Assembly (NCBI GenBank): GCA_012799935.1
Contig: JAAZKG010000036.1
Location: 1 to 36,915 of the forward strand
Direction: 5' to 3'
DNA length: 36,915 bases
DNA from: Erysipelotrichia bacterium
GTDB lineage: Bacteria > Bacillota_I > Bacilli_A > Erysipelotrichales > Erysipelotrichaceae
The notes under the pieces: model-generated
Databases searched by the model: none
The model's input: only the letters and a program-made list of their open reading frames with translations
Told to the model about the DNA's origin: nothing
Part shown: positions 3,971 to 24,004 of the stretch, in pieces
How the letters are laid out: the number at the start of each line of letters is the position of its first letter
Numbering within the stretch: the first letter of the stretch is position 1
Program-made: the position numbers and the translations under genes

Positions 3971-6900
3971 TTAGTCTTCTAATCTTGCTAATAAGTTATT
4001 GAAACGCTTTTCAGCATCTGATCTTGCTTTAGCATATAGTGCTTCAGCATTATCAGGATTAACTCTGACTAAGTTATTAAATCTTGCTTGTTCCATTAAG
4101 AAGTCATGGAATTTATCAAAGTTAGGATTCTTATAATCTAAGGTTAATGGTTTTTCATTGCGAGGGTCAAATCTATAAATATTGACATATCCGCATTCGA
4201 CAGCTGCTTTCTGCATTTCTTGATGCCTTACTAAGCCCTTTTTAATTCCGTGTAATTCACATGGAGAATACGCAATGATTAGAGATGGCCCATTATAGCT
4301 TTCTGCTTCTTTTAAAGCTTTGATAGCTTGAATTCTATTAGCACCCATACAAATTGAAGCAACATATACGTGACCATAACTCATAGCAATTTGACCTAGG
4401 TCTTTCTTAGCAACGGCTTTACCACCGGCAGCAAATTGGGCAATAGATGCAGCTTGAGAAGATTTAGAAGATTGTCCACCAGTATTTGAATATACTTCAG
4501 TATCTAATACTAAGATATTTACATTCAAGTCATTTGCGATAACATGATCCAATCCACCATAACCGATATCATAAGCCCAGCCATCACCACCAACAATCCA
4601 AATAGATGCAGATACTAAATCTCTAGCTTCCTTAGCTAATTTATGAACATTTTTATTAGCTGATTTAGCTGCTAACTCTTCAATTTGAGGAGCCAAACGT
4701 TTTTCTTCAGCTCTATTACCATTATTAGCTAAATAATCTTCAAATAATACTTTTAATTCTGGCTCTACTGTGTTAAGATTATCTTCCATAATTTTTAACA
4801 ATATTGCTCTCTTGTAGTTTCTAGCTAATGCCATACCATAACCAAATTCAGCATTATCTTCAAATAATGAGTTAGCCCAAGCAACACCATTTCCATCTTC
4901 ATCTGTAACAAATGGAGTTGAAGGAGTTGAACCACTATAAATTGAAGTACAACCTGTTGCGTTAGCAACCATCATATCTGGGCCAAATAATTGTGAAACT
5001 AATCTATAGTAAGGTGTTTCACCACAACCTGGACATGAACCAGGAACTTCCATATAAGGTTTTAAAAATTGAGTTCCTTTAGGAGTATCATCAACTAATT
5101 GCTTCTTATATTCAGTATCTTTATATAAGTAGTTAGCTAATGGTGCTTCTTTTAACATTGAATGGACATCAACCATTTCTAATGCTGCTCTTGGACATTC
5201 TTTAACACATAATCCACAACCTACACAGTTATCTGGAGAAACTTGAACTCTATATTTCAATCCTTTTGCCTTACCAACAGCATCAATAGTAGCAAATTCA
5301 AATGGTGCATTTGCAACTTCTTCTTCTGTTAAAGCAAAAATTCTGATTGTTGCATGTGGACATACAAATGAACAGAATCCACATTGGATACAATTTTCTG
5401 GAATCCATTTTGGTACAAATGAAGCAATGTTTCTATGTTCAAAATAAGCAACATTGTTTCTCATTGTTCCATCTAACACTCCAAATTTAGTGAAAGCACT
5501 AACTGGCATATTGTAACCGTTTAATGAGTTATATCCATAGACATGTTCATCCATGTAAGCATCACCAGTTTTAGGTTTTTCAAAATGAGGATCTAAATCA
5601 GCCCATTCTGGTTTGACTTTTATTTCAACTAAACCATCTTTACCAGCATCAATTGCTTTGTAGTTCATATTAACTACTTCATCACCTTTTCTACCATATG
5701 ATCTCTTAGCAGCTTCCTTCATTAGAACTAAAGCTTTATCATAAGGCATAATCTGCTCGTTTAAAGCAAAGAAAGCAGATTGTAAAGTGGTATTGGTTCT
5801 TCTTCCCATACCAATTTCAGCACAAATCTTTGTTGCATTGATGATATAGAATTTAGCATTTTTCTTTGCTAATTGAACTTTCATTCTATTAGGCAAATAT
5901 TCTTCAATCTTATCAGGGTCAATAGTGGTATTTAATAAGAAAGTACCATCTTGTGCTAAATCTTTTAAGATATCATATTTAGTAACATATGAGTCTAATG
6001 AACAAGAGATAAAATCAGCATTATTTACATAGTAAGTTGATTGAATTGGATCTGGTCCAAATCTCAAGTGGCTTCTTGTAACCCCACCTGCTTTTCTTGA
6101 GTCATATTGGAAATATGCTTGAGCATATAAATCAGTATTATCACCGATAATTTTAACTGAGTTTTTGTTAGCTCCAACTGTACCATCTGAACCTAAGCCC
6201 CAGAATAAGCAAGAAGTGTAAGTTCCTCTAATTGTAAAGTTAGGATCAACTTCTAATGATAAATGAGTAACATCATCAACGATACCAATTGTAAACTCTT
6301 CCTTTGGATTTTCTTTTGCCAGTTCATCATAAACCGCTTTAATTTGGTTTGGAGCGGTATCTTTAGATGCGATACCATATCTTCCACCGATAATTTCGAT
6401 GTCTTTATCTTTTAATACACTTAATACATCCAAGTATAAAGGTTCACGTGAACCGATTTCTTTAGTTCTATCTAAAACAGCAATCTTTTTAGTTGTTTTT
6501 GGTAAAACATTTAATAAATATTTAGTACTGAAAGGACGATATAAGTGGACATTAATAACACCAACCTTTTCTCCCTTTGCTACTAAAACATCAATAACTT
6601 CTTCAATAGTTTCAACTACTGAACCCATAGCCACGATAACTCTTTCAGCATCAGGTGCACCATAGTAAGTGAAAGGTTTGTAGTCTCTGCCTGTCTTTTT
6701 AGAAATTTCTTCCATGTATTCGTTAACAATATCTTCTACTGCAGCGAAATGTAAGTTTTGAGCTTCTCTACCTTGGAAAACAACATCATCATTTTCAGCT
6801 CCACCTCTGGTAACAGCGTTTCCATGTGGATTTAAAGCATTCTTTCTAAATTTTTCTAAAGCTTCTTTGTCAACTAAACTCTTTAAGTAGTCATAGTCTA

Positions 6901-7456
6901 AAGGTTCAACTTTTTGTACTTCATGAGATGTTCTAAATCCATCAAAGAAATGAACAAATGGAACTGAAGCTTTAATCGCTGCTAAGTGAGCTACTGAACC
7001 TAAGTCAAGAGCTTGTTGAACTGAACTTGATGCCAACATTGCACAACCAGTTTGTCTTGCAGCATAAATATCTTGGTGATCACCAAAAATTGATAGTGAA
7101 CGGGTAGCAATTGTTCTCGCTGCTACATGTACTACTGCTGGCAATAATTCTCCAGCCCATTTGTACATGTTTGGAATCATCAATAATAAACCTTGAGAAG
7201 CAGTAAACGTTGTTGCTAAAGCTCCTCCCTGTAGTGTTCCATGCACAGCACCAGCAGCGCCAGCTTCTGACTGCATTTCAGCAACTTTTACAACACTACC
7301 AAACATATTTTTACGATCTTGTGTCGCCCATTGGTCAATTACTTCTGCCATCGTACTTGACGGAGTAATTGGGTAAATTGCAGCAACTTCTGTAAATGCA
7401 TATGCAGCATAAGCAGCAGCTGTATTACCATCCATCGACATAAATGTTTTTGCCAT
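3971..7456 (-). CDS. nifJ: Pyruvate:ferredoxin (flavodoxin) oxidoreductase
   Basis: Full-length 1161 aa single-chain PFOR; YPITPSSTMAE, two 4Fe-4S motifs (CIQCGFCSFVCP, CVGCGLCVKECP), TPP domain GGDGWAYDIGYGG. Confidence 0.97.
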   Translation of the reverse strand: MAKTFMSMDGNTAAAYAAYAFTEVAAIYPITPSSTMAEVIDQWATQDRKNMFGSVVKVAEMQSEAGAAGAVHGTLQGGALATTFTASQGLLLMIPNMYKWAGELLPAVVHVAARTIATRSLSIFGDHQDIYAARQTGCAMLASSSVQQALDLGSVAHLAAIKASVPFVHFFDGFRTSHEVQKVEPLDYDYLKSLVDKEALEKFRKNALNPHGNAVTRGGAENDDVVFQGREAQNLHFAAVEDIVNEYMEEISKKTGRDYKPFTYYGAPDAERVIVAMGSVVETIEEVIDVLVAKGEKVGVINVHLYRPFSTKYLLNVLPKTTKKIAVLDRTKEIGSREPLYLDVLSVLKDKDIEIIGGRYGIASKDTAPNQIKAVYDELAKENPKEEFTIGIVDDVTHLSLEVDPNFTIRGTYTSCLFWGLGSDGTVGANKNSVKIIGDNTDLYAQAYFQYDSRKAGGVTRSHLRFGPDPIQSTYYVNNADFISCSLDSYVTKYDILKDLAQDGTFLLNTTIDPDKIEEYLPNRMKVQLAKKNAKFYIINATKICAEIGMGRRTNTTLQSAFFALNEQIMPYDKALVLMKEAAKRSYGRKGDEVVNMNYKAIDAGKDGLVEIKVKPEWADLDPHFEKPKTGDAYMDEHVYGYNSLNGYNMPVSAFTKFGVLDGTMRNNVAYFEHRNIASFVPKWIPENCIQCGFCSFVCPHATIRIFALTEEEVANAPFEFATIDAVGKAKGLKYRVQVSPDNCVGCGLCVKECPRAALEMVDVHSMLKEAPLANYLYKDTEYKKQLVDDTPKGTQFLKPYMEVPGSCPGCGETPYYRLVSQLFGPDMMVANATGCTSIYSGSTPSTPFVTDEDGNGVAWANSLFEDNAEFGYGMALARNYKRAILLKIMEDNLNTVEPELKVLFEDYLANNGNRAEEKRLAPQIEELAAKSANKNVHKLAKEARDLVSASIWIVGGDGWAYDIGYGGLDHVIANDLNVNILVLDTEVYSNTGGQSSKSSQAASIAQFAAGGKAVAKKDLGQIAMSYGHVYVASICMGANRIQAIKALKEAESYNGPSLIIAYSPCELHGIKKGLVRHQEMQKAAVECGYVNIYRFDPRNEKPLTLDYKNPNFDKFHDFLMEQARFNNLVRVNPDNAEALYAKARSDAEKRFNNLLARLED

Positions 7457-7530
7457 CTATAAGCCTCCTATTTTCTTTTATATTGCGTCTTTATTATAGA
7501 CCAAAACTGCTTTTCTCTCAATACATAAAG

Positions 7531-7584
7531 TTAAAACACCTTGCAAGTGATGGTATCTACCATCCACTTTAAGAAGGTGTCTTT
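7531..7584. terminator. Stem-loop terminator between rhomboid gene and PFOR
   Basis: ACACCTT..AAGTG.ATGGTA / TACCAT.CCACTT..AAGGTGT inverted repeat with T-rich flanks on both strands. Confidence 0.6.
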
Positions 7585-7616
7585 TAATTTTTATTCTATA
7601 TAATTCTATACATTTT

Positions 7617-8192
7617 CTATACTTTCTTATTTTTGTCTGAAACTAAGCCAAAGATAGAACCACATATTCCCCCCACAATATGAGTAAATTGCGAAATACT
7701 GTCGGTAATCATAATCGCATTATATATTTCAGCACCTAAGTAGATAACTATCACTAGTACTAAAGTCAAAGGAAGTTTACCTTTCTCAACAGATGTCACT
7801 GAAGACAGTACAATTAACATGAATACAATTCCCGAAGCTCCACATAGTGCTATATTAGAAAAAAACAAATTATTTAAAATTCCCGCAATTAAAGCAGTAG
7901 TTAAAACCATAACTAATAGTTTTTCAGAACCATATTTTTCTTCTACCATTGGACCTAGTAAAAGAATATAACTCATATTGCCAAGAAAGTGTTCCCAACC
8001 TAAATGGCCAAAAATATGAGTAATTAATCTAACATACATCATTGGGTTTAATAAGCTGTCTTTATATGTCATCGCTACAAATGATAAAAAGCCATCTCCT
8101 ATAAGATAGTATAAAATTAATACTATTAAACTAATTAATGAAAATGTTAATGTTACTGGAGCATTGTACTCAATTTTTTTAAATATCGACAT
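7617..8192 (-). CDS. Rhomboid-family intramembrane serine protease
   Basis: Multiple hydrophobic helices, GASG catalytic-Ser motif (ALCGASGIVFM), distal FTHIVGG His, GHLGWEHFLGNM. Confidence 0.85.
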   Translation of the reverse strand: MSIFKKIEYNAPVTLTFSLISLIVLILYYLIGDGFLSFVAMTYKDSLLNPMMYVRLITHIFGHLGWEHFLGNMSYILLLGPMVEEKYGSEKLLVMVLTTALIAGILNNLFFSNIALCGASGIVFMLIVLSSVTSVEKGKLPLTLVLVIVIYLGAEIYNAIMITDSISQFTHIVGGICGSIFGLVSDKNKKV

Positions 8193-8244
8193 AATATACC
8201 CTTCCTTTTTTTCAATTATACATTAACAAACAATAAAAAACTAA

Positions 8245-8898
8245 CTACCTTGTTAATTGTCCAAACAAAACAATAAATTCCTCACCCTTTATCTCAACCA
8301 ACTTAAATCTAAGTCCTCCATACTGAATAACTGTATTCAATTCAATTTTTCCTTTTTCTTTTATCCAAAAATCATACATCGTTAAGTTTTCATCATCTGA
8401 ATAATTCATAGATACACATTCAAAAGCTTCTTTTAGTTTATCATTGGAACAAATAGCATACCAGTTAGCATCAGATACTATTTTTTTAGGCAATGATTCC
8501 TTTTCTATCTCTAATACTACAGACATCTGATAAACTTCTTCTAACTGATATTTTATATACAGTTCCATTATAAAATTAGCCAACTTTCCAAATGGATCAA
8601 TTATCTGCCAATTATCGTTTTTTCCTAAAAAACCATAAGCATTAAAATAGTAATATTGTTTATTTGTAAGTTTTTTACGAAAGATTCTTGAACCATTCAT
8701 AACTGTTACATCATTTCCATCCGTTAATTCTTCTTTAGCTTCCAAAGCAATTAAAATATCTAACTTGATACTGTCAAAAACCGACATTGTTATTACCTGC
8801 TTATTATAACCAATTATTTCATAACGATTTAAAAAGATGAACCCAACTAACAAACCTACTACCAAAATTGGTAAAACTAGTCTTTTTATTATTTTCAT
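8245..8898 (-). CDS. Hypothetical protein with N-terminal membrane anchor
   Basis: 217 aa ORF, single N-terminal hydrophobic segment (LVLPILVVGLLVGFIFL), no family recognised. Confidence 0.6.
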   Translation of the reverse strand: MKIIKRLVLPILVVGLLVGFIFLNRYEIIGYNKQVITMSVFDSIKLDILIALEAKEELTDGNDVTVMNGSRIFRKKLTNKQYYYFNAYGFLGKNDNWQIIDPFGKLANFIMELYIKYQLEEVYQMSVVLEIEKESLPKKIVSDANWYAICSNDKLKEAFECVSMNYSDDENLTMYDFWIKEKGKIELNTVIQYGGLRFKLVEIKGEEFIVLFGQLTR

Positions 8899-9001
8899 TT
8901 TAGCTACTTCCTCTCTTAACTTGATTATACTATATATAACTGTATATCTAGTATTTTATTAAGATTATTTTATCAAAAAATCTTAAACATTCTCTATTTT
9001 T

Positions 9002-9242
9002 CATCATTTAGTTTATAATTAAATACAAGGAGTGATAAAAATGCCATTTTCGTTAGATATAAATCAAATACTTCTAATCACTATCAGCGTATTACTGTTA
9101 TTAATCGTTATTTTATTAATTGTCAATAATAGTAAAATAAATAAGCAGGAAAAAATTATTAAATATTATTTACATTATAGTTAATAAGCATACATACTAA
9201 TAATATTACATATCTTAATTAAAAAAAGGAGTAGCTTTTTAA
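9002..9242 (+). repeat. rmuC 5'-end direct repeat, copy 1 (truncated) with ~90 bp tail shared with copy 2
   Basis: 9002-9155 matches 22609-22761 with one substitution (AGC/AGT) plus a 1-nt run-length difference; tail matches 13484-13576 with a few differences. Confidence 0.95.
9041..9184 (+). pseudogene. Truncated rmuC start / potential 47-aa single-TM micropeptide
   Basis: ATG after AAGGAGTGATAAAA; MPFSLDINQILLITISVLLLLIVILLIVNNSKINKQEKIIKYYLHYS*; first 38 codons match RmuC. Confidence 0.6.
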
Positions 9243-9270
9243 TTAAACTCAAAGCATACTCCTTCTTTTT
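9221..9270 (-). terminator. Terminator of the TrpA-like/PTS operon; left stem lies in the repeat tail
   Basis: GGAGTAGCTTT ... AAAGCATACTCC stem, T7 on minus strand, adjacent to stop at 9270. Confidence 0.8.
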
Positions 9271-9998
9271 TATTTAGAACATTTGCTCTTCAGTTGTTTG
9301 ACAAATTCTGTTAAGCTTTTAAGATTATCGTATCGTTTTCCCAAAGCACTTCCTGGAACACATGCATAAATATCATAATCTACTAAAAACTCAACTGCTT
9401 CTGGCGTATAAATGCCTTGACCACACAATAATTGTACATCATCTCTCAACGATTTCACTGCTTTATAAATTTCAGCAAATCTATCAGTTGTAAATCCTGC
9501 CTTTTTATCTTTCTCATATGGAAATGTTTGCAAATAAACGAATCGTTCTGCTTTCTTTACCCCTTCTAATTCTTCTGGCGAACATTTATATGTTACAACT
9601 GGAGAATTTCGAATACCATTTTTCTTAACATTTTCTGCAGTTTCTTCACGAATTTTTCCAACTAAAAATACATCTTGTATTTTATTTTTCTTCAAAATTT
9701 CAATAACTTCATTTTCTCCATACGTATCAAAAATTTCTTGTGCGATTGAAGGTACAATTTCTAAATTTGGGTATTTATTTCTAGCCTTTTCTAGATAATC
9801 AAAATAATCTTGCAAATCTGGTTGCTTTTCTCTGGTTGTTTTTACCAAATCATAAAGGTGTTCTACTTCATAATATGGGTCAATTACTGGTAAATTCCAT
9901 TCTATTCCATCGCATCCACCAGCAACATAAGCATCTATTATTTCATCAAGTCTTTCGTGACTTGGATTTCCAGCTACTATCCAACAAAATAATTTCAT
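9270..9998 (-). CDS. TrpA-like TIM-barrel protein (tryptophan synthase alpha-subunit homologue) in a PTS operon
   Basis: GNPSHERLDEIIDAYVAGGCDGIEWNLPVIDPYYE resembles TrpA G(D/N)P...AGxDxIElGiPfsDP; C-terminal CGQGIYTPEAVEFL resembles TrpA GFGISTPEQV. Confidence 0.65.
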   Translation of the reverse strand: MKLFCWIVAGNPSHERLDEIIDAYVAGGCDGIEWNLPVIDPYYEVEHLYDLVKTTREKQPDLQDYFDYLEKARNKYPNLEIVPSIAQEIFDTYGENEVIEILKKNKIQDVFLVGKIREETAENVKKNGIRNSPVVTYKCSPEELEGVKKAERFVYLQTFPYEKDKKAGFTTDRFAEIYKAVKSLRDDVQLLCGQGIYTPEAVEFLVDYDIYACVPGSALGKRYDNLKSLTEFVKQLKSKCSK

Positions 9999-10015
9999 TT
10001 TTTAACTCTCCTAGA

Positions 10016-10858
10016 CTACATAATACCCATTGCTGTTAAAATACATACAACTATTATTGTTCCTACTAGCATAATAACAGTACTTACATTTTTCTTTCTC
10101 ATCCAATAAAAGAGAAATACAACAGCAAGTGAAAGCAAACCAGGGAAAATTCCATTAATAACATCCATAATATTAGTCTGATATCCTTCTGGTCCCCAAG
10201 TTAGTGCTAAATTAACACCAATACTAGTGTATGACATACCACCAATTACCATTAGTCCCAATATTGAAGCAGCACTCATAACTTTATCCATAAGTCCACT
10301 TTCCTGAAGCTTTGTTAATAAACCAGTACCCATCTCGTATCCAACCTGACCGCCATAAAAGCGGAAAATATTGTTTGGAATATTAAAAATTAAAAAATAT
10401 ACCAACGGAGCGATAGCATTTCCTGTCTGTGCCAAACTTATTGCTACAGATGCTCCAATAACTCTGATCGTACTTACAAATAATGCATCACCGATACCTG
10501 ATAAAGGCCCCATCAATGCAGATTTTACAGCATTTATTGAATGTTCATCAAAATCAGGGTCAAGTTTATTTTGTTCTTCCATAGCAACCATCAATCCACC
10601 CATGTAACTGTAAACCTGTGGAGTAGTTGCGTAATAAACTAAATGTCTTTGTAATGCTTTTGAGAAAGCCTCTTTATCATCACCATAAATTTTCTTTAAT
10701 GCTGGCCCAACAATAAAGCAGAAAGGAACATTTGTTAATCTTTCAAAATTACATGCACTCGCACCCATCATTGAACGCCAATTTAATTTAACAATATCTT
10801 TATGAGTAATAATCTTGTTATATTTATTTTCATTAATATTAGTATTCATTATCATCAC
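10016..10858 (-). CDS. PTS mannose/sorbose-family IID component
   Basis: WRSMMGASACNFERLTNVPFCFIVGPALKKIYGDD, FYGGQVGYEMGTGLL; IID family pattern; true start may be at 10849. Confidence 0.92.
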   Translation of the reverse strand: MMIMNTNINENKYNKIITHKDIVKLNWRSMMGASACNFERLTNVPFCFIVGPALKKIYGDDKEAFSKALQRHLVYYATTPQVYSYMGGLMVAMEEQNKLDPDFDEHSINAVKSALMGPLSGIGDALFVSTIRVIGASVAISLAQTGNAIAPLVYFLIFNIPNNIFRFYGGQVGYEMGTGLLTKLQESGLMDKVMSAASILGLMVIGGMSYTSIGVNLALTWGPEGYQTNIMDVINGIFPGLLSLAVVFLFYWMRKKNVSTVIMLVGTIIVVCILTAMGIM

Positions 10859-11612
10859 TTTTCCTTTCTTTCCCTACGGTTTTAAATGCTCCTACAAAAT
10901 TGTATTTAGTAAAAACAAGAATTAATCCTAAAACAGCAATTCCAATAATAGGAATTTTTAAGTATGCTGCTAAAAAGAACCCCAAAATGTAATAAGGTAC
11001 ATTTTCCTTATTCATAATCATAATCATAAGAATCGCCATACCTATCGCAGGTAGTACTCCGCCAGCTTTAGCCATTCCATTCAATATAACTGGGGGAATC
11101 ATATCCATAAATGCGTTGACCTTATCTGCACCCAATAACCACGCAAAATAGACAACAAAAAATTTTAATAAAGTGTTACCTATCATTTGGATGACCATTA
11201 TTCTATATACACCTTTATCATTGCCATTTTCAGCATGCTTATCAGCAATCTTAGCCATCACTGAATATAATGTCCACAAAATATTCTGTAACTGTGTCAT
11301 TACAACAGCAATTGGTACAGCCATAACTAAAGCTGCATCAGCATCTAATCCAGATTTAATCGCAAATGCACATGCTAAGATACCACTTATACCAGCATCT
11401 GGTGCAACATAAGCTCCAATAACAACTGAACCTAGAAAATATGTTTCTAATACAGCTCCTATTAACAAACCAGTTTGAAAATCGTTCAAAATCAATCCAG
11501 CTAGTGGACAAAGAACTATTGGCCTATTACAATACAAGAATCCAATGCACCAGTCTAACCAACAGTATGCTCCCAACAAGCCAAGTAAAAAAGCTTGCAA
11601 TCCTACTGACAT
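10839..11612 (-). CDS. PTS mannose/sorbose-family IIC component
   Basis: CNRPIVLCPLAGLILNDFQTGLLIGAVLETYFLGSVVIGAYVAPDAGISGILACAFAI; IIC family pattern. Confidence 0.92.
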   Translation of the reverse strand: MSVGLQAFLLGLLGAYCWLDWCIGFLYCNRPIVLCPLAGLILNDFQTGLLIGAVLETYFLGSVVIGAYVAPDAGISGILACAFAIKSGLDADAALVMAVPIAVVMTQLQNILWTLYSVMAKIADKHAENGNDKGVYRIMVIQMIGNTLLKFFVVYFAWLLGADKVNAFMDMIPPVILNGMAKAGGVLPAIGMAILMIMIMNKENVPYYILGFFLAAYLKIPIIGIAVLGLILVFTKYNFVGAFKTVGKERKSDDNEY

Positions 11613-11968
11613 ATTAATCCTCCTCTCTTTTTTTACCTATTAAATGTCATTAATATAATTTTCATCTATTATTTACATTTTTTAAAATGTCTTAGAACAG
11701 CATTTCATAATATTCAATCAGTTTTTTAGAAAGCAATTCTCAACTTGATTATTATTAAATATTTGGTTACATTTCTTAAAATTCAAATATTTAACTTTTA
11801 TTAAACTTAATTATTTCTATTTTTTATAAACAATGAATATGTAAATTTACATATAATCGTAACAAAATACAATTAATCGCTAATAATATTGAGTATTAGT
11901 TCACTATGAAAAATTGAATAGTAATTGTTAATGTTCTAACAATTTTGCTGTTCCTTTCTAATGAATAT

Positions 11969-12076: not shown

Positions 12077-12085
12077 CTTTCAATT

Positions 12086-13044: not shown

Positions 13045-13335
13045 TTCATAATCCTCCTCTTTTTAATTATATCATTGGTGATTCATGTAAAATAATCTAA
13101 AAACATTAGTGAATATATAAGTTTATATAATTTACTGTCTTTTTATAACTATATTGTAAATAAAATTAAACTTGTTTTATTGCATTTTAAATGTAAAATT
13201 AACAAGTATATAAAAATAATTCATCGTTAAGGAGTTTTTGTCTATTTCGTTATATTTTCTCTTTCTTGTAATTAAATTATACAATATATTTTAATAAATT
13301 AGTTTTTGCATATTTTTATTCTCTTTCTATAATCC

Positions 13336-13576
13336 CATCATTTAGTTTATAATTAAATACAAGGAGTGATAAAAATGACATTTTCGTTAGATATAAATCA
13401 AATACTTCTAATCACTACCAGCGTATTACTGTTATTAATCGTTATTTTATTAATTATCAATAATAGTAAAATAAATAAGCAGTAAAAATTATTAAACATT
13501 ATTTAAATTATCGTTAATAAACATACATACTAATAATTTTACATATCTTAATTTAAAAAAAGGAGTAGCTTTTTAA
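13336..13576 (+). repeat. rmuC 5'-end direct repeat, copy 2 (truncated) with tail shared with copy 1
   Basis: Same promoter/RBS/TM codons as 22609 with a handful of substitutions; tail runs to GGAGTAGCTTTTTAA (half of the copy-1 terminator). Confidence 0.95.
13375..13485 (+). pseudogene. Truncated rmuC start / potential 36-aa single-TM micropeptide
   Basis: MTFSLDINQILLITTSVLLLLIVILLIINNSKINKQ*; GAA of rmuC replaced by TAA. Confidence 0.6.
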
Positions 13577-13867: not shown

Positions 13868-14857
13868 TTATTCCAGTTCTCTATTCAGCAAAAAAGGTAA
13901 ATTTGCAGATTTAGCTGCTTGTTCCAGAACATACTGAACATGCAAAGTTATTTCATTATATTTGTGACAGCTGATGAAATCTTTTTCTAGGTACATTCTT
14001 TCAAATTCAATCCATTCATGACATGAAGCACCAAATTCACCATCTATACCATCGGAAAACTTTTTGATTTCACCATCATTTAGTATCATCTCAATTTCTG
14101 CTACTCTGCTAGCAGTAGAAGTACAACGCATACAACCTTTTTCTCCCTGTATATTGATATAACAGGGAGCTTTACTATCCTTACTGTTAATTAAAGATGC
14201 TTTAAACTCTCCGTAATCTAAAACCAAAACACCGCTGGTATCTACGCCCTGATACATATTCGGATAATAATAAACACCAGCAGGTCTTCCAAAAAGTCCT
14301 ACCGTATAATGAATATTATAGACTCCCAAATCCATCAGTGCGCCTCCAGCCAGTTCTTTATTAAAGGCTGGTAAAACAGTCCCTTCCTTAAACCTGTCAT
14401 ATCTTCTGGAATACTGGGAAAAGTTACCATCAACTATTTTTATCTGCCCTATTTTTTCCATATAGGGTTTGAAATCTAGATAGTTTTTAGCAAATTGAGT
14501 GACAATTGCTTCAAATACAAATAGCTTCTTCTCTTTTCCAAGATTGATAAGTTCCTCTGCTTCTTTATAAGTTACACAAAATGGTTTTTCAACAATTACA
14601 TGCTTTCCTGCCAACAGTGCTCTTTTGGCATAACTGTAATGCAGACTGTTTGGCAGACCGATATAAATAACATCAACGCTTTCATCATTAAAGACTTTCT
14701 TTAAGTCGGTAGTATAATAATCAAAATCATTTTCAAACTGTTTTATTTTTTCTTCATGTCTGCCCCAGATAGCTCTTAAATGATAGAAATCATACTGTTT
14801 CCAAATAGGAAGAAAATTTGTAACAATAAATCCGGAACCCAGAACACCTAAATTCAT
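13868..14857 (-). CDS. Gfo/Idh/MocA-family NAD(P)-dependent oxidoreductase
   Basis: N-terminal LGVLGSGFI Rossmann start, DVIYIGLPNSLHYSYAKRALLAGKHVIVEKPF (EKP motif). Confidence 0.93.
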   Translation of the reverse strand: MNLGVLGSGFIVTNFLPIWKQYDFYHLRAIWGRHEEKIKQFENDFDYYTTDLKKVFNDESVDVIYIGLPNSLHYSYAKRALLAGKHVIVEKPFCVTYKEAEELINLGKEKKLFVFEAIVTQFAKNYLDFKPYMEKIGQIKIVDGNFSQYSRRYDRFKEGTVLPAFNKELAGGALMDLGVYNIHYTVGLFGRPAGVYYYPNMYQGVDTSGVLVLDYGEFKASLINSKDSKAPCYINIQGEKGCMRCTSTASRVAEIEMILNDGEIKKFSDGIDGEFGASCHEWIEFERMYLEKDFISCHKYNEITLHVQYVLEQAAKSANLPFLLNRELE

Positions 14858-14871
14858 CTTCTATATCCTCC

Positions 14872-16005
14872 TTAAAGTTGAGAAACACCTTTGCAGTAAG
14901 TCTGTATAGTATTAAAATCATCATCAAATACAGCTATATCTGCATCATATCCTGGTAAAATTCTTCCCTTTTTATCCGCAATATTCAGCAGTCTGGCAGC
15001 ATTATAACTTGAGGCATTAATAGCAGTTTCCAAATCCATTTCACATAGCTGTACAGCAATCCTTAAAATATTATTCAGACCCAGGGTAGAGCCCAAGTAC
15101 ATCCCAGTTCCAACCTCTTTGACACTGCCATCCTGAGTGACTTCCGCACAGAAACCACCACAATCAAATATACCAGGCGGCATTCCCTGCAGAGCCAAAG
15201 AATCGGTTACTAATATCAGTTTTTCTTTTCCTTTCATCTTTGCCAGGATTTTACAGGCCGGAACTGACACCATTGAATTATCACAAATCAACTCAGCATA
15301 TAAATTATCATTTAACATGGCAGCACCCACACATCCAGGATCACGGTGTTTTAACGGACTCATACAATTATAAGTATGAGTCATATTCAAAAGACCATGT
15401 TTATTTGCTTCATTTATCTGTTCAAATGTTGCTGCAGTATGGGCTGCAGTAGGTATAACATTTAATTTAACAAGATGATCAATAAACTCTGCTGCACCAG
15501 GCTTTTCAGGCGCCACTGCACATATTTTAATCAAACCATCAGCCACTTTATGATAACTGTTATATTCATCAATATCCGGATTAATAATGTATTTTATATC
15601 CATACCGCCGACATATTCTGTTCCTAAAAATGGACCTTCCAGATATATGCCCAGTATTTCTGCTCCACTGTATCCGTCATTAACGACATTTACAACATTT
15701 TCTATTGATTTTATCTGTGTCTGATGACTGCATGAAAAAGTTGTTACAAGCAATGAAGTTGTCCCAAACTTTGTAACACCTTTGACCCATGTTTTTATTC
15801 CCTGCTCATCAGTATCGATTGCATCGCAACCAAATCCTCCATGAGTATGAATATCAATAAGACCTGGAATAATCATATGGTTATTGTAATCCACATCAGC
15901 TTTGCTATCATAAGGAAGCCATTTGGCAACCTTGCTATTTTCGATAAGTAAAGCTGCTGGGGAGAAAGTACTTTCTCCCCAAACTCTTTTACTTTTAATA
16001 ATCAT
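14872..16005 (-). CDS. nagA: N-acetylglucosamine-6-phosphate deacetylase
   Basis: PGLIDIHTHGGFGCD, YLEGPFL, AAHTAATFEQ, THTYNCMSPLKHRDPG, LVTDSL motifs. Confidence 0.93.
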   Translation of the reverse strand: MIIKSKRVWGESTFSPAALLIENSKVAKWLPYDSKADVDYNNHMIIPGLIDIHTHGGFGCDAIDTDEQGIKTWVKGVTKFGTTSLLVTTFSCSHQTQIKSIENVVNVVNDGYSGAEILGIYLEGPFLGTEYVGGMDIKYIINPDIDEYNSYHKVADGLIKICAVAPEKPGAAEFIDHLVKLNVIPTAAHTAATFEQINEANKHGLLNMTHTYNCMSPLKHRDPGCVGAAMLNDNLYAELICDNSMVSVPACKILAKMKGKEKLILVTDSLALQGMPPGIFDCGGFCAEVTQDGSVKEVGTGMYLGSTLGLNNILRIAVQLCEMDLETAINASSYNAARLLNIADKKGRILPGYDADIAVFDDDFNTIQTYCKGVSQL

Positions 16006-16010
16006 CAGTT

Positions 16011-17564
16011 CTATAGAACTCCGATATAAGTCAACAGAACACCTACTACTAAGGCAGAAATCATCAGTACTACTGGTTTAATATTTTTCTTTAATAATTT
16101 AGACATTATATACACTGTCAATAATGGAACCATACTTGGCAATAATGAATCTAAAAACTCCTGAACACTAATTGCCATATCACCAGCAGTAATTACTAAT
16201 GGTGTTGATACCCAGACCATAGAACTGGTCATACCGCCGATTACCATCAATCCGACAATGCCAGCAGCAATTGACAGGTTTTCAAGTAAATTATATTGTG
16301 ATAATTTTGAAACAAAGTTCATACCTAATTCATATGACTTATGAGCTCCATAATAACGTGTAAATACAGCAGGTACATTAAAGATTATCAAAAATACCAG
16401 TGGTGCGGCAACATTACCCTGAACACCTAACGAACAAGCAACACCAGCTGCTACAGTACGCAGAATACCCCAGAAAATTGAATCACCTATACCAGCCAGT
16501 GGACCCATGAATGCTGAACGGACTGCACCGATTGATGCTGGGTCCATCGTGTCTCTGTTACGAGAATATTCTTCTTCCATCGCTAAAGTAATACCCATGT
16601 TGATAGGAGCACACTGAGGTGTAGTCTGGAACATTACACAGTTACGAGACATAGCTTCAGCTAAGGCTTCTTTGTCATCGCCATAGATTTTTCTCAGTGC
16701 TGGAATAAGAGCATAACCGAAACCGGTACCCTGAAATTTTTCATAGTTATATGAAGCTTCCAATGTAAAGGCACGCCAGAACATATTGTTGATTTCTTTT
16801 TTTGTCAGCATTGGCTTTGAATCAGCAGGTGCTGAAAAATCTGGTAGCTCCGTTGAACCAAGAGTGAAATATAAAACAGCAACTGAAGCACCCAAAATAG
16901 CAATCGCAATAGTATCCAAACCTAAATATGCTGCAAGCACAAAACCAATGAAGAAGAAGGCAGCAATCTTTTTGTTCCAGATAGAATTCAATAAAATCGC
17001 AAATCCAAGTGCAGGTAATAATTTTGTTCCAGCAGAAATACCATCCATTAACCAAGCTGGTAAACTGTTAAAGAAATTTTCAACCAATGTTGATCCTAAG
17101 TTTACACAGATAACAGTAGAAACAAAATACAGTAAACTCCAAAGACCAAATGCACACCAGTGATATCTCTCGTATTTTTTGTAATCCCCTTCTTTAGCTG
17201 CTTTGTCCATACCTGAAACAAAAACCTGAACTAAAATGTAATGCAGGTTGTCCAGCATTGAATAAAGTACCCCAAATGGTACTGCTAGGGCTAATGCTGC
17301 TTCCAATCCTGCACCTGACTGCATTGCGATTGCTACCGCAACACATCCAGCAAGTGTAACAACTGGTACAGCTCCGCCAATTGACATCTGTCCCATAAAT
17401 ATCAATTCAATTGAGCTGCCCATAATAACTCCTGTTGGTAAGTCACCATAGACTAAACCAACTAAAGCACCCAATACAACCGGTCTTTGTATCATACTGG
17501 TACCAGTAAGATAATCACATAAACCAATTACGGAAATTAATCCAACTAAAATCGACTGTAACAT
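16011..17564 (-). CDS. Fused PTS mannose/sorbose-family IIC-IID protein
   Basis: N-terminal IIC (IQRPVVLGALVGLVYGDLPTGVIMGSSIELIFMG) continues in one ORF into IID (FWRAFTLEASYNYEKFQGTGFGYALIPALRKIYGDD). Confidence 0.93.
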   Translation of the reverse strand: MLQSILVGLISVIGLCDYLTGTSMIQRPVVLGALVGLVYGDLPTGVIMGSSIELIFMGQMSIGGAVPVVTLAGCVAVAIAMQSGAGLEAALALAVPFGVLYSMLDNLHYILVQVFVSGMDKAAKEGDYKKYERYHWCAFGLWSLLYFVSTVICVNLGSTLVENFFNSLPAWLMDGISAGTKLLPALGFAILLNSIWNKKIAAFFFIGFVLAAYLGLDTIAIAILGASVAVLYFTLGSTELPDFSAPADSKPMLTKKEINNMFWRAFTLEASYNYEKFQGTGFGYALIPALRKIYGDDKEALAEAMSRNCVMFQTTPQCAPINMGITLAMEEEYSRNRDTMDPASIGAVRSAFMGPLAGIGDSIFWGILRTVAAGVACSLGVQGNVAAPLVFLIIFNVPAVFTRYYGAHKSYELGMNFVSKLSQYNLLENLSIAAGIVGLMVIGGMTSSMVWVSTPLVITAGDMAISVQEFLDSLLPSMVPLLTVYIMSKLLKKNIKPVVLMISALVVGVLLTYIGVL

Positions 17565-17574
17565 ATTATCCTCC

Positions 17575-18048
17575 TTATTTATTTAACAGTTTTTTTATTA
17601 ATGTCTTCGACTCATCAGGTGTTCTGCGAATTTCTAATTCTACCCCTTTGTCAAGCAGATATTTGCAGATTTCAATATCCTCAGATGTCAAAGATATAGC
17701 TGGTGCGTAACGAGCTGAATCAGCTCTTTCTCTCAAGTTGCCAAAATTGAGCGATGGTAAATCAAGTTCATCAAAAATTCTTTTAGCATCAAGTAAATTA
17801 TTGATGATGACCATGACCCTTCTTGTTGTTTCTATTTGTTCCCTCATATATGCAATACCATCAGCTACAGAAATAATTTTTAGTTCAACGCCAATAGGTT
17901 TTGCCAGCCCTAAAGTCATTTTCAGAAACTCATCATTTACAACCTTATCGTTAACAATTACAACCGTATGAATTGAATAGGTTTGTGTCCATAACAGCGC
18001 TACCTGCCCATGTAACAGACGGTCATCAATTCTAATAACACTTATCAT
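17575..18048 (-). CDS. PTS mannose/sorbose-family IIB component
   Basis: IRIDDRLLHGQVALLW active-site region typical of IIB-Man. Confidence 0.95.
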   Translation of the reverse strand: MISVIRIDDRLLHGQVALLWTQTYSIHTVVIVNDKVVNDEFLKMTLGLAKPIGVELKIISVADGIAYMREQIETTRRVMVIINNLLDAKRIFDELDLPSLNFGNLRERADSARYAPAISLTSEDIEICKYLLDKGVELEIRRTPDESKTLIKKLLNK

Positions 18049-18060
18049 TTATTTTCCCTC

Positions 18061-18444
18061 CTATAATTCTTTCATATTAAAGAAGTGTACCTGTTTTTTT
18101 CCATTTTCAATGCATTCTTTAATAATGTCTTCATTGATGTCATCATCATTCATTAAAGCTAACTCAAGAATCATTGAAAGATTAAAATCCGTTATTATGT
18201 AAGCATCTTTCCCACGCAATGCTGTCATTACTTCTCTATTAACTGAGCCATAACAAATATCAGTGAAAACCAATAACTTTTCATCTGAATTTTCTACAAT
18301 ATCGGTAATGGTCTGTTCAATTGATTCACTTTCTGGTTTATAGCAGTCAACTACAAAAAACTTTCTTCTATCACCAATAATAAAATTGATTGTATCAAAA
18401 GTACCTGATGCCATTGATCCGTGTGTTGCAATAATGAATATCAT
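18061..18444 (-). CDS. PTS mannose-family IIA component
   Basis: IIATHGSMASG with phosphoacceptor His; DICYGSVNREVM. Confidence 0.9.
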   Translation of the reverse strand: MIFIIATHGSMASGTFDTINFIIGDRRKFFVVDCYKPESESIEQTITDIVENSDEKLLVFTDICYGSVNREVMTALRGKDAYIITDFNLSMILELALMNDDDINEDIIKECIENGKKQVHFFNMKEL

Positions 18445-18503
18445 ACAATCTGATCTCTTTTATTCTATTTATATTATATTTTTCTTTAAAACCTTCTTCA
18501 AAT

Positions 18504-20456
18504 CTATTTTTTCACTATCAATAGTGAAAGTTGATTAGCCAAATCTATGCACCTCATTAAATTTTCATAGGTTGGATTTTTACGATACTCTAATACAAGT
18601 TCATCGTTTTTTAACCACCTGGTCATAAAGTCCATCAGTAAAATAAACTGTCTTGCTTGGCTAATATTACAGTCAGCATAAATAATCGTCTGTATCAAAT
18701 TTTTATCGATAACTATCTGTTTTCTCAAATTGAAAATTCTTACAAATGATTTATCAGGATGACTTTTAGTGCATAATAATGCACATCCGTTTCCTAATTC
18801 TGTAATTGAATAATCACCAATCACATCTTTATCATCTTCTTTATTTTCAGATAATAAATTGTTAATCTCACTAATTAGTTCACTTTCATACGAGCATTGA
18901 AGATTATCATAAACATTATTTTCATCAAGAAGTAATTTATAAAACTCATTTCCAATCAGCGATTTTTCAATTAAAACCGAAAGTCTATCAGGATCATAAT
19001 AATTAAAGTTCTTCAAAATCAGAACTGGAATATTTTTTATTTGTGGCAGTCCTGTTGAAGAAATTATTATATCATATTGACTTTCATCAATATTATCCAA
19101 TTCAGTAACATCTAATAACCTGATTTCATCGTTATTACCTTTCCTAGCAAAGTTTATTTTACTGTAAAGTATTATTCCTTCCGGTCTGCCAGTTCCTGTG
19201 ATAACTGCTATTGTTAATCCTTCACTCATTCTTTTCCTGCTCAAAGCTAAAGAAAAATACAGTGCTAAGTAACCTTCCTCATTTTCATCAACAAAAACTG
19301 AGAACTCTTTTTCAATATCAAAAATTATTCTTCTAGCAAAAATGGTAGCCACCAAATTTTCTTTCACAGCATTGCCTGATTCATAGTTTCTTAATGGAAA
19401 ACCTATTTCAAGTCTTTCAATCATTGCACTGACATGTACTAAAACATAGTCATAAATTGTCTGATCCTGAACTATATCAACACCATACTGTTCTTTAATT
19501 TCCTGCATTGTCTTATTAATAACCATTCTTAAACGGGTATGTTTTAAAGTATCATCATTTAATGAATGTTTTACATTTATTCTTTTACTTTTAAGATGCA
19601 GACTAAAATAAATCGCTTCCGATTGTGGTAGCACTATTCCAAATGATTCAGCTAACCTGTCTGCCAAGGCTTTCCCAGCCTTTTCTTCCAACGTTCCTTT
19701 AATTTTGTCCGCTATCTCATCTGAAATTTTAGCATAGTCAAACAACATCCATCTTCTTAAGGCGATCATGATATGAATAGTAAAATTTTCTACCGAATAC
19801 GCTGAAATCTGTATTGAATAATCTTTTAAGACTCCTAATAGAATCGCTTTTATTCTTTTTATTTCCACTTTAAGTGAAGTTTCAGGAAACATCAGATTGT
19901 CTTCAGCCTGAATTTTATCATTAAAGTAATTGTGAAAGAAAAACTCAGCGATACAGATTCTTTTGTAGATTTCTGAACCAGCTAATAGTATTGAATTATG
20001 CTGATTATATTGAAGAAATAGCTTGTAACGCTTTAAAATAATCTCAACCTTTTTCAGACAGGAGTATAGAGTCGGTTTTTCCACATACATTTCATCTGCT
20101 AGATCATCCATATCTACTGGAAAATCCACGGACAGAAGTTTCATAATTATATAATTAATTCGTTCTTCAGAAGTCTGAGGAATACGTTTCTTTTCTTCTC
20201 TGTATTTTGTCTTGAGATGATCATCAAGTAAAGAAAACTTCTCTTCATCAAATACCTCTAGGCTATATCCCTGACCCTGCTTGGCAATTATTTTCCCACC
20301 ATATTTCTGTAAGACTGAAGATAATCTTCTGATATCTGATTTGATTGTACGTGAAGAAACGCCAGTAATAAATGCCAGCTGTTCACTTGTTATGGGCTTG
20401 TTGCTGTCTTTAATTTCCAGCAAAATTCTCAAAATTCTGTTATTTAATCCAATCAT
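18504..20456 (-). CDS. BglG-family PRD transcriptional regulator/antiterminator
   Basis: N-terminal HTH (LAFITGVSSRTIKSDIRRLSSVLQKYG), PRD-like segments, PTS-like C-terminal region. Confidence 0.85.
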   Translation of the reverse strand: MIGLNNRILRILLEIKDSNKPITSEQLAFITGVSSRTIKSDIRRLSSVLQKYGGKIIAKQGQGYSLEVFDEEKFSLLDDHLKTKYREEKKRIPQTSEERINYIIMKLLSVDFPVDMDDLADEMYVEKPTLYSCLKKVEIILKRYKLFLQYNQHNSILLAGSEIYKRICIAEFFFHNYFNDKIQAEDNLMFPETSLKVEIKRIKAILLGVLKDYSIQISAYSVENFTIHIMIALRRWMLFDYAKISDEIADKIKGTLEEKAGKALADRLAESFGIVLPQSEAIYFSLHLKSKRINVKHSLNDDTLKHTRLRMVINKTMQEIKEQYGVDIVQDQTIYDYVLVHVSAMIERLEIGFPLRNYESGNAVKENLVATIFARRIIFDIEKEFSVFVDENEEGYLALYFSLALSRKRMSEGLTIAVITGTGRPEGIILYSKINFARKGNNDEIRLLDVTELDNIDESQYDIIISSTGLPQIKNIPVLILKNFNYYDPDRLSVLIEKSLIGNEFYKLLLDENNVYDNLQCSYESELISEINNLLSENKEDDKDVIGDYSITELGNGCALLCTKSHPDKSFVRIFNLRKQIVIDKNLIQTIIYADCNISQARQFILLMDFMTRWLKNDELVLEYRKNPTYENLMRCIDLANQLSLLIVKK

Positions 20457-20457
20457 A

Positions 20458-21798
20458 CTAATCTAACAGCTGCCATGCCTTTTCCCAGAGTTCTGGCAGA
20501 TATTGTTTATTTGCTTGCAATAAATCATAGAGCAATGGTTTTACAATACTGACATCAGTGATTGTTCTGTTTAACGCAAACCCCTGAACACATTTTTTCA
20601 GATTATTTTCCAACACCCCGTCAACACACAGTCTCTCACAGGCATACTGATTTTCAATCATACCTTTATAGAAAATATCTACTTCACCAAAATACAGTTT
20701 TTCAACACCTGAAAAAGTCACTATACAAGGAATTTCAACAATTGCATCTCTGTCAATGTTGGGAATTGCTCCATCATTAACTACCGGAATTAAAAATTGG
20801 GTATTTCTTTTCGGATGTAAAGTTGCTTCAATGAAATCAAAAATATATTCTCCATGCACTTTGCTGTCTAAACCGCTTCCCTTAATTGTGTTATTTTCAA
20901 TAATCTGCTGGCACATTTTTTCTACTCCTGCCTGCTTTTTATCTTTTACAGAGTTTGCTCTAGTATAATCAGGATTTGATTCTTTAACAATTTCATTCAT
21001 ATAAAAATAATACTCAAAATATGTCGAAGGTATATATCCTCCTAAATCTTTCAGCATTTTACCCAACCTTTTGAAAGTTGCTACCCAATCTGAATCATTT
21101 TTCAATTCATCAGGGACCACATTTTCAGATGTCAGTTTTTTAATTATCTCCGGCATCCTATCTTTTCCAGTTGAATCATAAATATTATTAAACCAGCCAA
21201 AATGATTCAATCCAAAATATCTGGGAACTAATTCACCTTTTTTCAGATTCAAAGCTGATTCAAAGGCATCGAGCATCAGTATTGTCATATCACATAAATA
21301 AACAAGCCTCTTATCATCACGATAATACCTCCTTGTTGCTTCAGCCAACATACTAGCTGGATTGCCAAAATTGATAATCCAGCTGTCCTTTGAATACTTT
21401 CTGGCAGCATCTACTATTTCCAGTGTATCAGCAATTGAACGCATTCCGTACATCAGACCACCTGCTCCACAGGTCTCCTGACCAATACAGCCATGTTTCA
21501 AAGGTATTTTTTCATCCGCTTCTCGCATATCAAGTCCACCTGTTCTAATCTGAACAAGTATATAATCTACATCTTTAACAGCTTCATCCAGTGTCTGCGC
21601 AACTTTAATTTCACACTCAGGATAAATTTCATTAAACATTACTTCAGCTGCCTGATAACGTAAAAATTGCCTTTTTTCATCAATATCATAAAGATAAACC
21701 CTATTTAAAGGAAAAACTTCTTTCTTTTGACATAGGGTATGTAATAAAGGCAATGTGTACAGACTACCTCCTCCAATAACAGCTAATTTATATGACAT
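20458..21798 (-). CDS. Glycoside hydrolase family 4 (6-phospho-glycosidase-like)
   Basis: LAVIGGGSLYTLPLL, QETCGAGG, NFGNPASMLAEA, GLNHFGW motifs of NAD-dependent GH4; start set to MSYKLAV with GGAGG upstream rather than 21831. Confidence 0.9.
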   Translation of the reverse strand: MSYKLAVIGGGSLYTLPLLHTLCQKKEVFPLNRVYLYDIDEKRQFLRYQAAEVMFNEIYPECEIKVAQTLDEAVKDVDYILVQIRTGGLDMREADEKIPLKHGCIGQETCGAGGLMYGMRSIADTLEIVDAARKYSKDSWIINFGNPASMLAEATRRYYRDDKRLVYLCDMTILMLDAFESALNLKKGELVPRYFGLNHFGWFNNIYDSTGKDRMPEIIKKLTSENVVPDELKNDSDWVATFKRLGKMLKDLGGYIPSTYFEYYFYMNEIVKESNPDYTRANSVKDKKQAGVEKMCQQIIENNTIKGSGLDSKVHGEYIFDFIEATLHPKRNTQFLIPVVNDGAIPNIDRDAIVEIPCIVTFSGVEKLYFGEVDIFYKGMIENQYACERLCVDGVLENNLKKCVQGFALNRTITDVSIVKPLLYDLLQANKQYLPELWEKAWQLLD

Positions 21799-22050
21799 AA
21801 TATTACCTCCGATATTTACTGGCGCTAACAATATTTATTCCTTGATTCTTCAGCTTTATTTTACTGTTTCAATATTTAAAATTTCAATTATTTATTAACT
21901 TAGCAAAACAAAAATATTTTTTTCTATTTATATTATAAACCACAATAATTAAAAACTTCAATTAAACTACTTTACGTTATTTGAATCAATAGTAACTACT
22001 CTTAATTTTGAAATTTTACGCTTAATTAACGGACGATATACCTAGACATT

Positions 22051-22500
22051 TTAAACACCATTGAATAAACAATAATTTTTAGTATCGTTATAATTGACTC
22101 TAAAATCAAACCACTTTGATATTCCAATCATAATTAGTATTTTTTCATTGTCATCGGTATCGGCAAATCCTTTAAGAAATACCATTAACGAAAGATACCT
22201 ATTTATATACTTAATAGCGACACTTTTATAGTAAGCCAACATTTTCTTTATTAAACTGTGAATATAACTAACCATATTTAAATGTTCTACCTTATTACGA
22301 GAAGTGTGTGTCTTTAAATTAACCAACTTACTTTCGCTTGCTTCAGCTAGTTAGTTGTAACAGAATAAACCATCACTATAAATAACGGATTTATTAAAGA
22401 TTCTTATTAGCTAAATGTAGTGAAATATCTTTATTAGTTGGTTTTCTGTTAATTGAGCTGATTTTTAATAATTCCTATTGTCTCATATGTTATGTACCTC
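22051..22500 (-). pseudogene. Degenerate IS1595-like transposase remnant (C-terminal part)
   Basis: Minus strand reads NKSVIYSDGLFCYN*LAEASESKLVNLKTHTSRNKVEHLNMVSYIHSLIKKMLAYYKSVAIKYINRYLSLM, resembling the IS1595 DDE region (SDG..Y, VNLK, HLN.VN..HS.LK, GVATKYLxNYL); in-frame stop; upstream boundary approximate. Confidence 0.6.
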
Positions 22501-22608
22501 TTTCAGTAATAAAATACTTTATTTTTAACTTTATTGATGGAGGGCGTTTTATGTATATAAGTATATTATCGGTTAATTAAGCTTTTTTTTATTATCTTTC
22601 TATAATCC

Positions 22609-22764
22609 CATCATTTAGTTTATAATTAAATACAAGGAGTGATAAAAATGCCATTTTCGTTAGATATAAATCAAATACTTCTAATCACTATCAGTGTATT
22701 ACTGTTATTAATCGTTATTTTATTAATTGTCAATAATAGTAAAATAAATAAGCAGGAAAAATTA
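22609..22764 (+). repeat. rmuC 5'-end direct repeat, copy 3 (within intact rmuC)
   Basis: CATCATTTAGTTTATAATTAAATACAAGGAGTGATAAAAATG... shared with 9002 and 13336. Confidence 0.95.
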
Positions 22765-24003
22765 ATTGATAGTAGATTAGATAAATATCTGATAGATATT
22801 AACAACAATACTAATTCTTCGCTAAATACCCTGGCAAACAATCTTTTCAATTACCTGCAGGCTAATAATAATGTCCAAATTGAAAGAATTGAAAATTCTA
22901 GCAGAAACATTAATGAAGGATTAAAATCTTTATCCAACTATCTTTTAGAATCCCAAAAACAAAATAATACTCATCAACTAAATAAACTAGAAACAATTAA
23001 TAAAACTCTAACTTCTAATGCTTTAATTGAAGAACAAAAACTGGATAATTTAAGAACAACAATAGAAACCAATCTAAACAGTATTAGACAGGACAATAAT
23101 AAGCAACTAGAACAAATGAGAAAAACAGTTGATGAAAAACTTCAAGAAACTCTGGAAACTAAATTAAGCCAATCATTTAAAACTGTTTCCCAACAATTAG
23201 AAAATGTTTATAAGGGACTAGGAGAAATGAGAACTTTAGCCACTGGAGTAGGTGATTTAAAAAGAGTTTTAACCAATGTTAAAACTAAAGGAATTTTAGG
23301 TGAAATCCAACTGTCAGCTATTATTAAAGATATTTTAAATAACTCACAGTATGAGGAAAATATAAATACCAATCCTGAAAGTAATGAAAAAGTAGAATTT
23401 GCGATTAAACTTCCTTCAACTGATGATAGTTTTATCTATTTGCCAGTTGACTCAAAATTCCCTTCTAGAGATTATATCGCCATTCAAAATGCCCTTGAAA
23501 CTGGTGATAAAGAAGAAATTGAAAATGCTCGAAAACAACTTATCAACACTTTAAAAATACAAGCTAAAACGATTAGAGATAAATATATTAGTGTGCCTCA
23601 CACTACTGAGTTTGCGATAATGTTTTTACCGACCGAAGGATTATATTCTGAAGCATGTAATCTTAATATGCTAGAAGTTTTACAAAGACAATATAAAGTT
23701 ACCATTACTGGTCCTAGTACCTTTGCGGCTTTATTAAACTCTTTGCAGATGGGCTTTAAAACATTGGCTATCCAAAAAAGAAGTAGCGAAGTTTGGAACC
23801 TGCTTGGATCAGTGAAAACTGAATTTGAAAAATTTGAAGGAGTCTTAAATAATGCCCAGCAATATATTCAAAAAACTTCTGATGAGTTGGATAGTCTGGT
23901 TGGAACCAGGACTAAAGCTATCAATAGACATTTAAAAAATATTCAATCAAGTAATATTCCACTTAGTGAATTTAATCAAATAGAAAATAAGGAGGTAGAA
24001 TAA
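22648..24003 (+). CDS. rmuC: DNA recombination protein RmuC
   Basis: N-terminal TM anchor, long coiled coil, RmuC domain (KTKGILGEIQLSAIIKDIL, LPVDSKFPSRDY, EFAIMFLPTEGLYSEA, ITGPSTFAALLNSLQMGF); start set to ATG after AAGGAG. Confidence 0.93.
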   Translation: MPFSLDINQILLITISVLLLLIVILLIVNNSKINKQEKLIDSRLDKYLIDINNNTNSSLNTLANNLFNYLQANNNVQIERIENSSRNINEGLKSLSNYLLESQKQNNTHQLNKLETINKTLTSNALIEEQKLDNLRTTIETNLNSIRQDNNKQLEQMRKTVDEKLQETLETKLSQSFKTVSQQLENVYKGLGEMRTLATGVGDLKRVLTNVKTKGILGEIQLSAIIKDILNNSQYEENINTNPESNEKVEFAIKLPSTDDSFIYLPVDSKFPSRDYIAIQNALETGDKEEIENARKQLINTLKIQAKTIRDKYISVPHTTEFAIMFLPTEGLYSEACNLNMLEVLQRQYKVTITGPSTFAALLNSLQMGFKTLAIQKRSSEVWNLLGSVKTEFEKFEGVLNNAQQYIQKTSDELDSLVGTRTKAINRHLKNIQSSNIPLSEFNQIENKEVE

Positions 24004-24004
24004 A

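What the first reader, a model, noticed from the sequence alone, without database searches (positions are those of the whole stretch)
9150..9242. Conserved left-end tail shared by both truncated copies but absent from rmuC
After the rmuC-like codons, copies 1 and 2 stay similar for ~90 bp (ttattaaa.attattta.attat.gttaataa.catacatactaataat.ttacatatcttaatt..aaaaaaaggagtagctttttaa), whereas intact rmuC diverges at AAAAATTA. The two cassettes have different cargo, so a common end sequence suggests an element-specific terminus. The tail has more differences than the rmuC-like part, suggesting constraint on, or gene conversion of, the latter.
Basis: seen in the sequence. Interest (0 to 1): 0.75.

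Follow-up and report, generated by a model that had tools for sequence, protein, structure and literature searches.

The report
Tandem sugar-gene island at rmuC start
Two blocks of sugar-uptake genes sit side by side in front of a DNA-maintenance gene (rmuC), each bounded by a copy of that gene's first part and by the same short end sequences, so they look like two related inserted units that left the gene intact, but no enzyme that would move them is present.

Summary
The 3' part of the flagged stretch (9158-9242) matches 13491-13576 (5 substitutions, 1 gap in 86 columns). Both follow a copy of the rmuC start (A: 9002-9157, 13336-13490), and intact rmuC (22609 on) diverges from them at that boundary. 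Three sister genomes have an uninterrupted rmuC; the nearest is collinear with window 4066-9160 and then 22609-27941, so 13.4 kb was gained here. The gained DNA is two units with unrelated sugar-PTS cargo. Besides the left tail, both share a 24-bp right end (22/24) that is not native rmuC upstream sequence. Each unit thus reads A-tail-cargo-right end-A, and rmuC stays intact. This is the anatomy of tandem accreted, integrase-less (CIME-like) islands. Two things qualify the "element terminus" reading. The last ~22 bp of the tail are one arm of unit 1's operon terminator; the other arm lies in unit 1 cargo and is missing from unit 2, so the tail's outer edge is a breakpoint in a hairpin loop, suggesting a cargo swap. 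The tail was found nowhere else (200 family genomes, viral contigs, about 1 Mb of its own genome), and no recombinase is in or linked to the units. Mobility is inferred, not shown.

The parts
8899..9001 (.). Native chromosomal left flank (outside the insertion)
   Evidence: 92.2% identical to the sequence upstream of uninterrupted rmuC in G002; the matching positions left of copy 2 and of intact rmuC are only 54.9% identical to it
9002..9157 (+). A, copy 1: rmuC positions -39 to +117 (TATAAT, ribosome-binding site, 39 codons), truncated
   Evidence: 98.1% to 22609-22767; one substitution vs intact rmuC in the first 149 bp; frame open for 47 aa
9158..9242 (+). Tail (left end) of unit 1
   Evidence: 5 substitutions and 1 gap vs 13491-13576; absent elsewhere
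9221..9269 (-). Terminator hairpin of the unit 1 operon; one arm lies in the tail, the other in unit 1 cargo
   Evidence: -19.8 kcal/mol, z -4.9, 0 of 200 shuffles as stable; the copy 2 equivalent has no stable hairpin (z 0.27)
9270..11612 (-). Unit 1 cargo operon: TrpA-like barrel protein, PTS IID, PTS IIC (mannose/sorbose type)
   Evidence: Pfam PF00290, PF03613, PF03609
12124..13044 (-). Unit 1 cargo: YhfZ-type regulator
   Evidence: PF14503 4.7e-46, PF14502 2.2e-15
13312..13335 (+). Right end of unit 1 (RE24)
   Evidence: 22/24 identical to 22585-22608; similarity stops further left
13336..13490 (+). A, copy 2: truncated rmuC start with an in-frame stop at codon 37
   Evidence: 96.6% to intact rmuC over 179 bp including part of RE; 4 private substitutions incl. 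stop
13491..13576 (+). Tail (left end) of unit 2, ending in half a terminator
13868..21831 (-). Unit 2 cargo: Gfo/Idh oxidoreductase, amidohydrolase, PTS IICD, IIB, IIA, PRD/Mga-type regulator, GH4 glycosidase
   Evidence: Pfam hits
22020..22582 (-). Decayed IS1595-family remnant with terminal inverted repeats, abutting RE24 of unit 2
   Evidence: 25-bp imperfect terminal repeats; 99-aa frame hits PF12762 below its cut-off, E = 0.005
22585..22608 (+). Right end of unit 2 (RE24), now the upstream flank of intact rmuC
22609..22767 (+). A at the start of intact rmuC
22648..24003 (+). Intact rmuC, the interrupted and regenerated target gene
   Evidence: PF02646 9e-68; 94% and 84% aa identity to uninterrupted orthologues in G002, G001, G005

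Best explanation
A 13.4-kb island of two tandem units was inserted at the 5' end of rmuC in this Erysipelotrichia genome. Each unit has the layout A(rmuC start)-tail-cargo-RE24-A. The insertion left a truncated rmuC start on the left and supplied a new upstream flank to the intact gene on the right. The flagged tail is the common left end of both units and RE24 is their common right end. The most likely mechanism is recombination at the rmuC start between the chromosome and a circular form carrying RE24-A-tail, carried out by a recombinase acting in trans or since lost. The second unit was added by accretion at the resulting attR-like repeat, or both came as one composite. Later, the interior of one unit was exchanged at the loop of the operon terminator on the left and next to an IS1595 remnant on the right. 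Shown: the uninterrupted site in sisters, the repeats, the common ends, the unrelated cargo, the half terminator, the lack of a recombinase gene. Inferred: the circular form, site-specific recombination, the order of events, any present mobility.
For: Uninterrupted site: window 4066-9160 and 22609-27941 are adjacent in G002 (90.7% and 86.1%), and G001 and G005 are also uninterrupted. Three direct repeats of the rmuC start. Common left tail and common right end that is not native. Cargo has no close counterpart in sister species or in 200 family genomes; best hits are 64-78% identical or short. Only one substitution in 149 bp separates A of copy 1 from A of intact rmuC, against 5/85 between the tails (Fisher p = 0.025): the units were separate before the rmuC copies split, as expected for elements that arrived with their ends. 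No other separated direct repeat of this kind in 0.97 Mb of this genome. Precedents: CIMEs and tandem accretion (PMC5704250); Dehalococcoides ssrA islands, 15 of which lack an integration module (PMC3146451); SXT/R391 at the 5' end of prfC with tandem arrays (PMC2786100).
Against: No integrase in either unit. The genome's three tyrosine integrases and three large serine recombinases lie on other contigs, with no meaningful match to A or tail beside them; two of the three tyrosine enzymes look like the genus-wide XerC/XerD pair. The ~155-bp A copies are long for an att core, and copy 2's A is far closer to this host's own rmuC (about 97%) than the nearest sister species is (88%), which suggests homology-driven exchange or capture from this host lineage. 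No dyad with 10-bp arms was found in A. The tail was found nowhere else. The half terminator fits a cargo swap inside a duplicated unit as well as it fits two independent elements.
Confidence: 0.5

Rival explanations
1. Homologous recombination only, no site-specific element. A circle or fragment carrying an rmuC start plus unit 1 integrated once (Campbell-type). RecA crossing over between the flanking A repeats then amplified unit 1 in tandem, and the interior of the second copy was replaced by unit 2 cargo, with breaks in the terminator loop and at an IS1595 end. The tail is simply the undisturbed left edge of unit 1.
For: Tail similarity ends inside the loop of unit 1's terminator, whose other arm is missing in unit 2. 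Right-end similarity ends 2 bp from an IS1595 remnant. A copies are long and match this host's own rmuC. No recombinase is linked.
Against: It does not explain why the first circle carried an rmuC start. The tails differ more than A of copy 1 differs from A of intact rmuC (p = 0.025), the reverse of a recent duplication unless gene conversion homogenised A.
Confidence: 0.37
2. Assembly artefact: units 1 and 2 are alternative alleles at rmuC in a strain mixture, joined end to end in this metagenome assembly through the repeats.
For: The genome is a fragmented assembly (163 contigs, 84% complete), its named sister contigs are MAGs, and the repeats are about 155-265 bp long.
Against: The three A copies carry distinct substitutions and flanks, so they are separable; both outer flanks are collinear with a sister genome.
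Confidence: 0.08
3. The tail is an ordinary or chance-similar AT-rich stretch with no link to an insertion.
For: The tail is AT-rich and weak AT-rich matches occur in many genomes.
Against: 80 of 86 aligned columns identical, directly next to a duplicated gene start, and absent at the uninterrupted sites.
Confidence: 0.02

Closest known systems
CIMEs (cis-mobilizable elements) and tandem accretion, ICESt1/ICESt3-related elements of Streptococcus (as reviewed in PMC5704250)
   Same: Cargo flanked by attL/attR-like repeats, no integration or transfer genes, tandem arrangement, one end of a target gene repeated at each junction
   Different: Target is the 5' end of rmuC; repeats are about 155 bp; no helper integrase identified; excision not shown
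Tandem ssrA genomic islands of Dehalococcoides (PMC3146451)
   Same: Several islands stacked at one gene, bounded by direct repeats of that gene, with metabolic cargo, some without an integration module
   Different: 20-bp repeat of a tmRNA 3' end and a serine recombinase there; here a protein-gene start and no recombinase
SXT/R391 ICEs in the 5' end of prfC (PMC2786100, PMC4344509)
   Same: Insertion at the start of a protein gene; tandem arrays and hybrid elements
   Different: About 100 kb, own integrase and conjugation genes; here 4-9 kb units without either

Membership tests
CIME / integrase-less genomic island | Flanked by direct repeats of a target-gene end (attL/attR) | tested here: met
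   Three A copies; uninterrupted site in three sister genomes. That they act as att sites is not shown.
CIME / integrase-less genomic island | No integration or transfer genes of its own | tested here: met
   Pfam of all larger ORFs gives PTS and sugar genes and regulators; the only recombination-related trace is a decayed IS1595 fragment
CIME / integrase-less genomic island | att sites recognised by an integrase (own ancestor's or a helper's) | tested here: inconclusive
   Integrases on other contigs have no A or tail sequence beside them; genome 84% complete
CIME / integrase-less genomic island | Excision or mobilisation | not testable with these tools
   Needs PCR or reads for the circle junction and empty rmuC
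ICE or IME | Own integrase plus relaxase or conjugation genes | tested here: not met
   None among the ORFs of 9161-22608
Element family with conserved ends | Same end sequences found with other cargo in other genomes | tested here: not met
   Tail only in this window among 200 family genomes, 2.9 million viral contigs (exact pattern) and 0.97 Mb of its own genome

The most novel reading that the evidence does not exclude
The 5' end of rmuC is a previously unreported attachment site for a family of small, integrase-less sugar-uptake islands that share a left tail and a 24-bp right end, are moved in trans, and restore the gene with a new upstream flank each time they integrate.
Probability: 0.27. 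Interest if true: 0.5.

Novelty: new member of a known kind. Interest (0 to 1): 0.33.

Why it matters
If mobile, this would be a case of sugar-PTS operons spreading among Erysipelotrichia by stacking at one gene start without disrupting it, and the 155-bp repeats predict reversible loss of either unit. As it stands it is one locus in one assembled genome that adds rmuC to the list of possible island insertion sites.

Tried and rejected
Tail search in 200 family genomes: 42 other genomes had weak AT-rich matches; the best (G043, E = 4e-7) lies in an unrelated AT-rich intergenic stretch near phage-like genes, not by rmuC. Exact tail pattern and RmuC profile in viral contigs: nothing related. RmuC in genome contigs: only the three sister records plus one distant one. 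Cargo of unit 1 on plasmids: two weak Enterococcus PTS matches only. Two short G002 matches to A (C58, C6) lie beside housekeeping genes, no integrase. Dyad search for a recombinase core: none above chance. Scan of 0.97 Mb of the own genome for other gene-start repeats flanking cargo: none at comparable identity. Papers naming rmuC as attB or integration site: none found in the held library.

Full report
Observation. The window holds three copies of the start of rmuC on the + strand: 9002-9157, 13336-13490 and 22609-22764. Only the last continues into a full RmuC protein (PF02646). I call this segment A; it runs from -39 to +117 of the gene and includes TATAAT, the ribosome-binding site and 39 codons. 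Behind the first two copies comes a common tail, 9158-9242 and 13491-13576, with 5 substitutions and 1 gap in 86 columns. Intact rmuC leaves the other two at the A/tail boundary.

Uninterrupted site. In the nearest (G002) window 4066-9160 aligns to 1-5080 and window 22609-27941 to 4922-10246, so the 13.4 kb between them is an insertion with a 159-bp overlap. G001 and G005 are also uninterrupted.

Ends. Copy 1's left flank is the native one (92.2% to G002). The left flanks of copy 2 and of intact rmuC are not (54.9% each), but they match each other in the 24 bp directly before A (22/24) and no further. Thus the insertion consists of two units, each A-tail-cargo-RE24-A: unit 1 about 9158-13335, unit 2 about 13491-22608. 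The cargoes are unrelated operons: unit 1 has a TrpA-like protein, PTS IID and IIC and a YhfZ-type regulator; unit 2 has a Gfo/Idh oxidoreductase, an amidohydrolase, PTS IICD, IIB and IIA, a PRD regulator and a GH4 glycosidase. Neither has a close DNA counterpart in the sister species or in 200 family genomes.

What the tail is. On the minus strand 9221-9269 folds into a strong terminator of the unit 1 operon (-19.8 kcal/mol, z -4.9). One arm is the last part of the tail (AAAAAAGGAGTAGCTTTTT); the other arm is in unit 1 cargo. In unit 2 the tail's arm is identical, but its partner is missing and no stable hairpin forms (z 0.27). The two arms most likely arose together, so the ancestral left end carried the whole terminator, and unit 2 was joined to it by a break in the hairpin loop (inference). 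On the right, unit 2's similarity to unit 1 ends 2 bp from a decayed IS1595-type remnant (terminal repeats at 22020 and 22582; PF12762 below cut-off). Both outer edges of the shared ends therefore look like secondary breakpoints from a cargo exchange; the inner edge (A/tail, A/RE24) is the insertion boundary.

Timing. Between copy 1 and intact rmuC there is 1 difference in 149 bp of A; between copies 1 and 2 there are 4; between the tails 5 in 85. The contrast with A of copy 1 vs intact rmuC is weakly so (p = 0.025). That fits units that were already distinct when they entered rmuC, but the numbers are small and gene conversion of A is an alternative.

Mechanism. The arrangement matches integration at a gene start followed by accretion, as in CIMEs and tandem islands and in SXT at prfC. 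Against simple membership: no recombinase in the units; the recombinases elsewhere in the genome have no A or tail sequence beside them; A is long and host-like; and the tail was found nowhere else. Homologous recombination plus cargo replacement is a serious rival. I put the two at about 0.50 and 0.37.

Uniqueness. In 0.97 Mb of the same genome no other separated direct repeat of comparable identity was found, so this looks like a single locus, not a genome-wide habit. No paper in the held library names rmuC as an integration site.

Verdict. A real, coherent structure: a two-unit island at the rmuC start with common ends. It is most like integrase-less tandem islands; its mobility is unproven; interest is modest.

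Noticed in passing
window 22020-22582: Decayed IS1595-family remnant with 25-bp imperfect terminal repeats and no clear target duplication; similar ends occur in sister genomes G001 (C20) and G002 (C87).
   Followed up: partly
window 8245-8898: A 217-aa protein gene without Pfam match lies between rhomboid and rmuC here and in G002 but is absent in G001 and G005, so the region upstream of rmuC has changed before; one break lies close to the left edge of A.
   Followed up: partly
window 12086-12115: Perfect 30-bp palindrome (TACAAAAATATGTACGTACATATTTTTGTA) just downstream of the YhfZ-type regulator gene, beside another inverted repeat at 12031-12076.
   Followed up: no
window 15958-15981: Perfect 24-bp palindrome inside the 5' part of the amidohydrolase gene of unit 2.
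   Followed up: no
window 9041-9181: Truncated rmuC copy 1 still has an open frame for a 47-aa peptide with one hydrophobic stretch, whereas copy 2 has a stop at codon 37.
   Followed up: no
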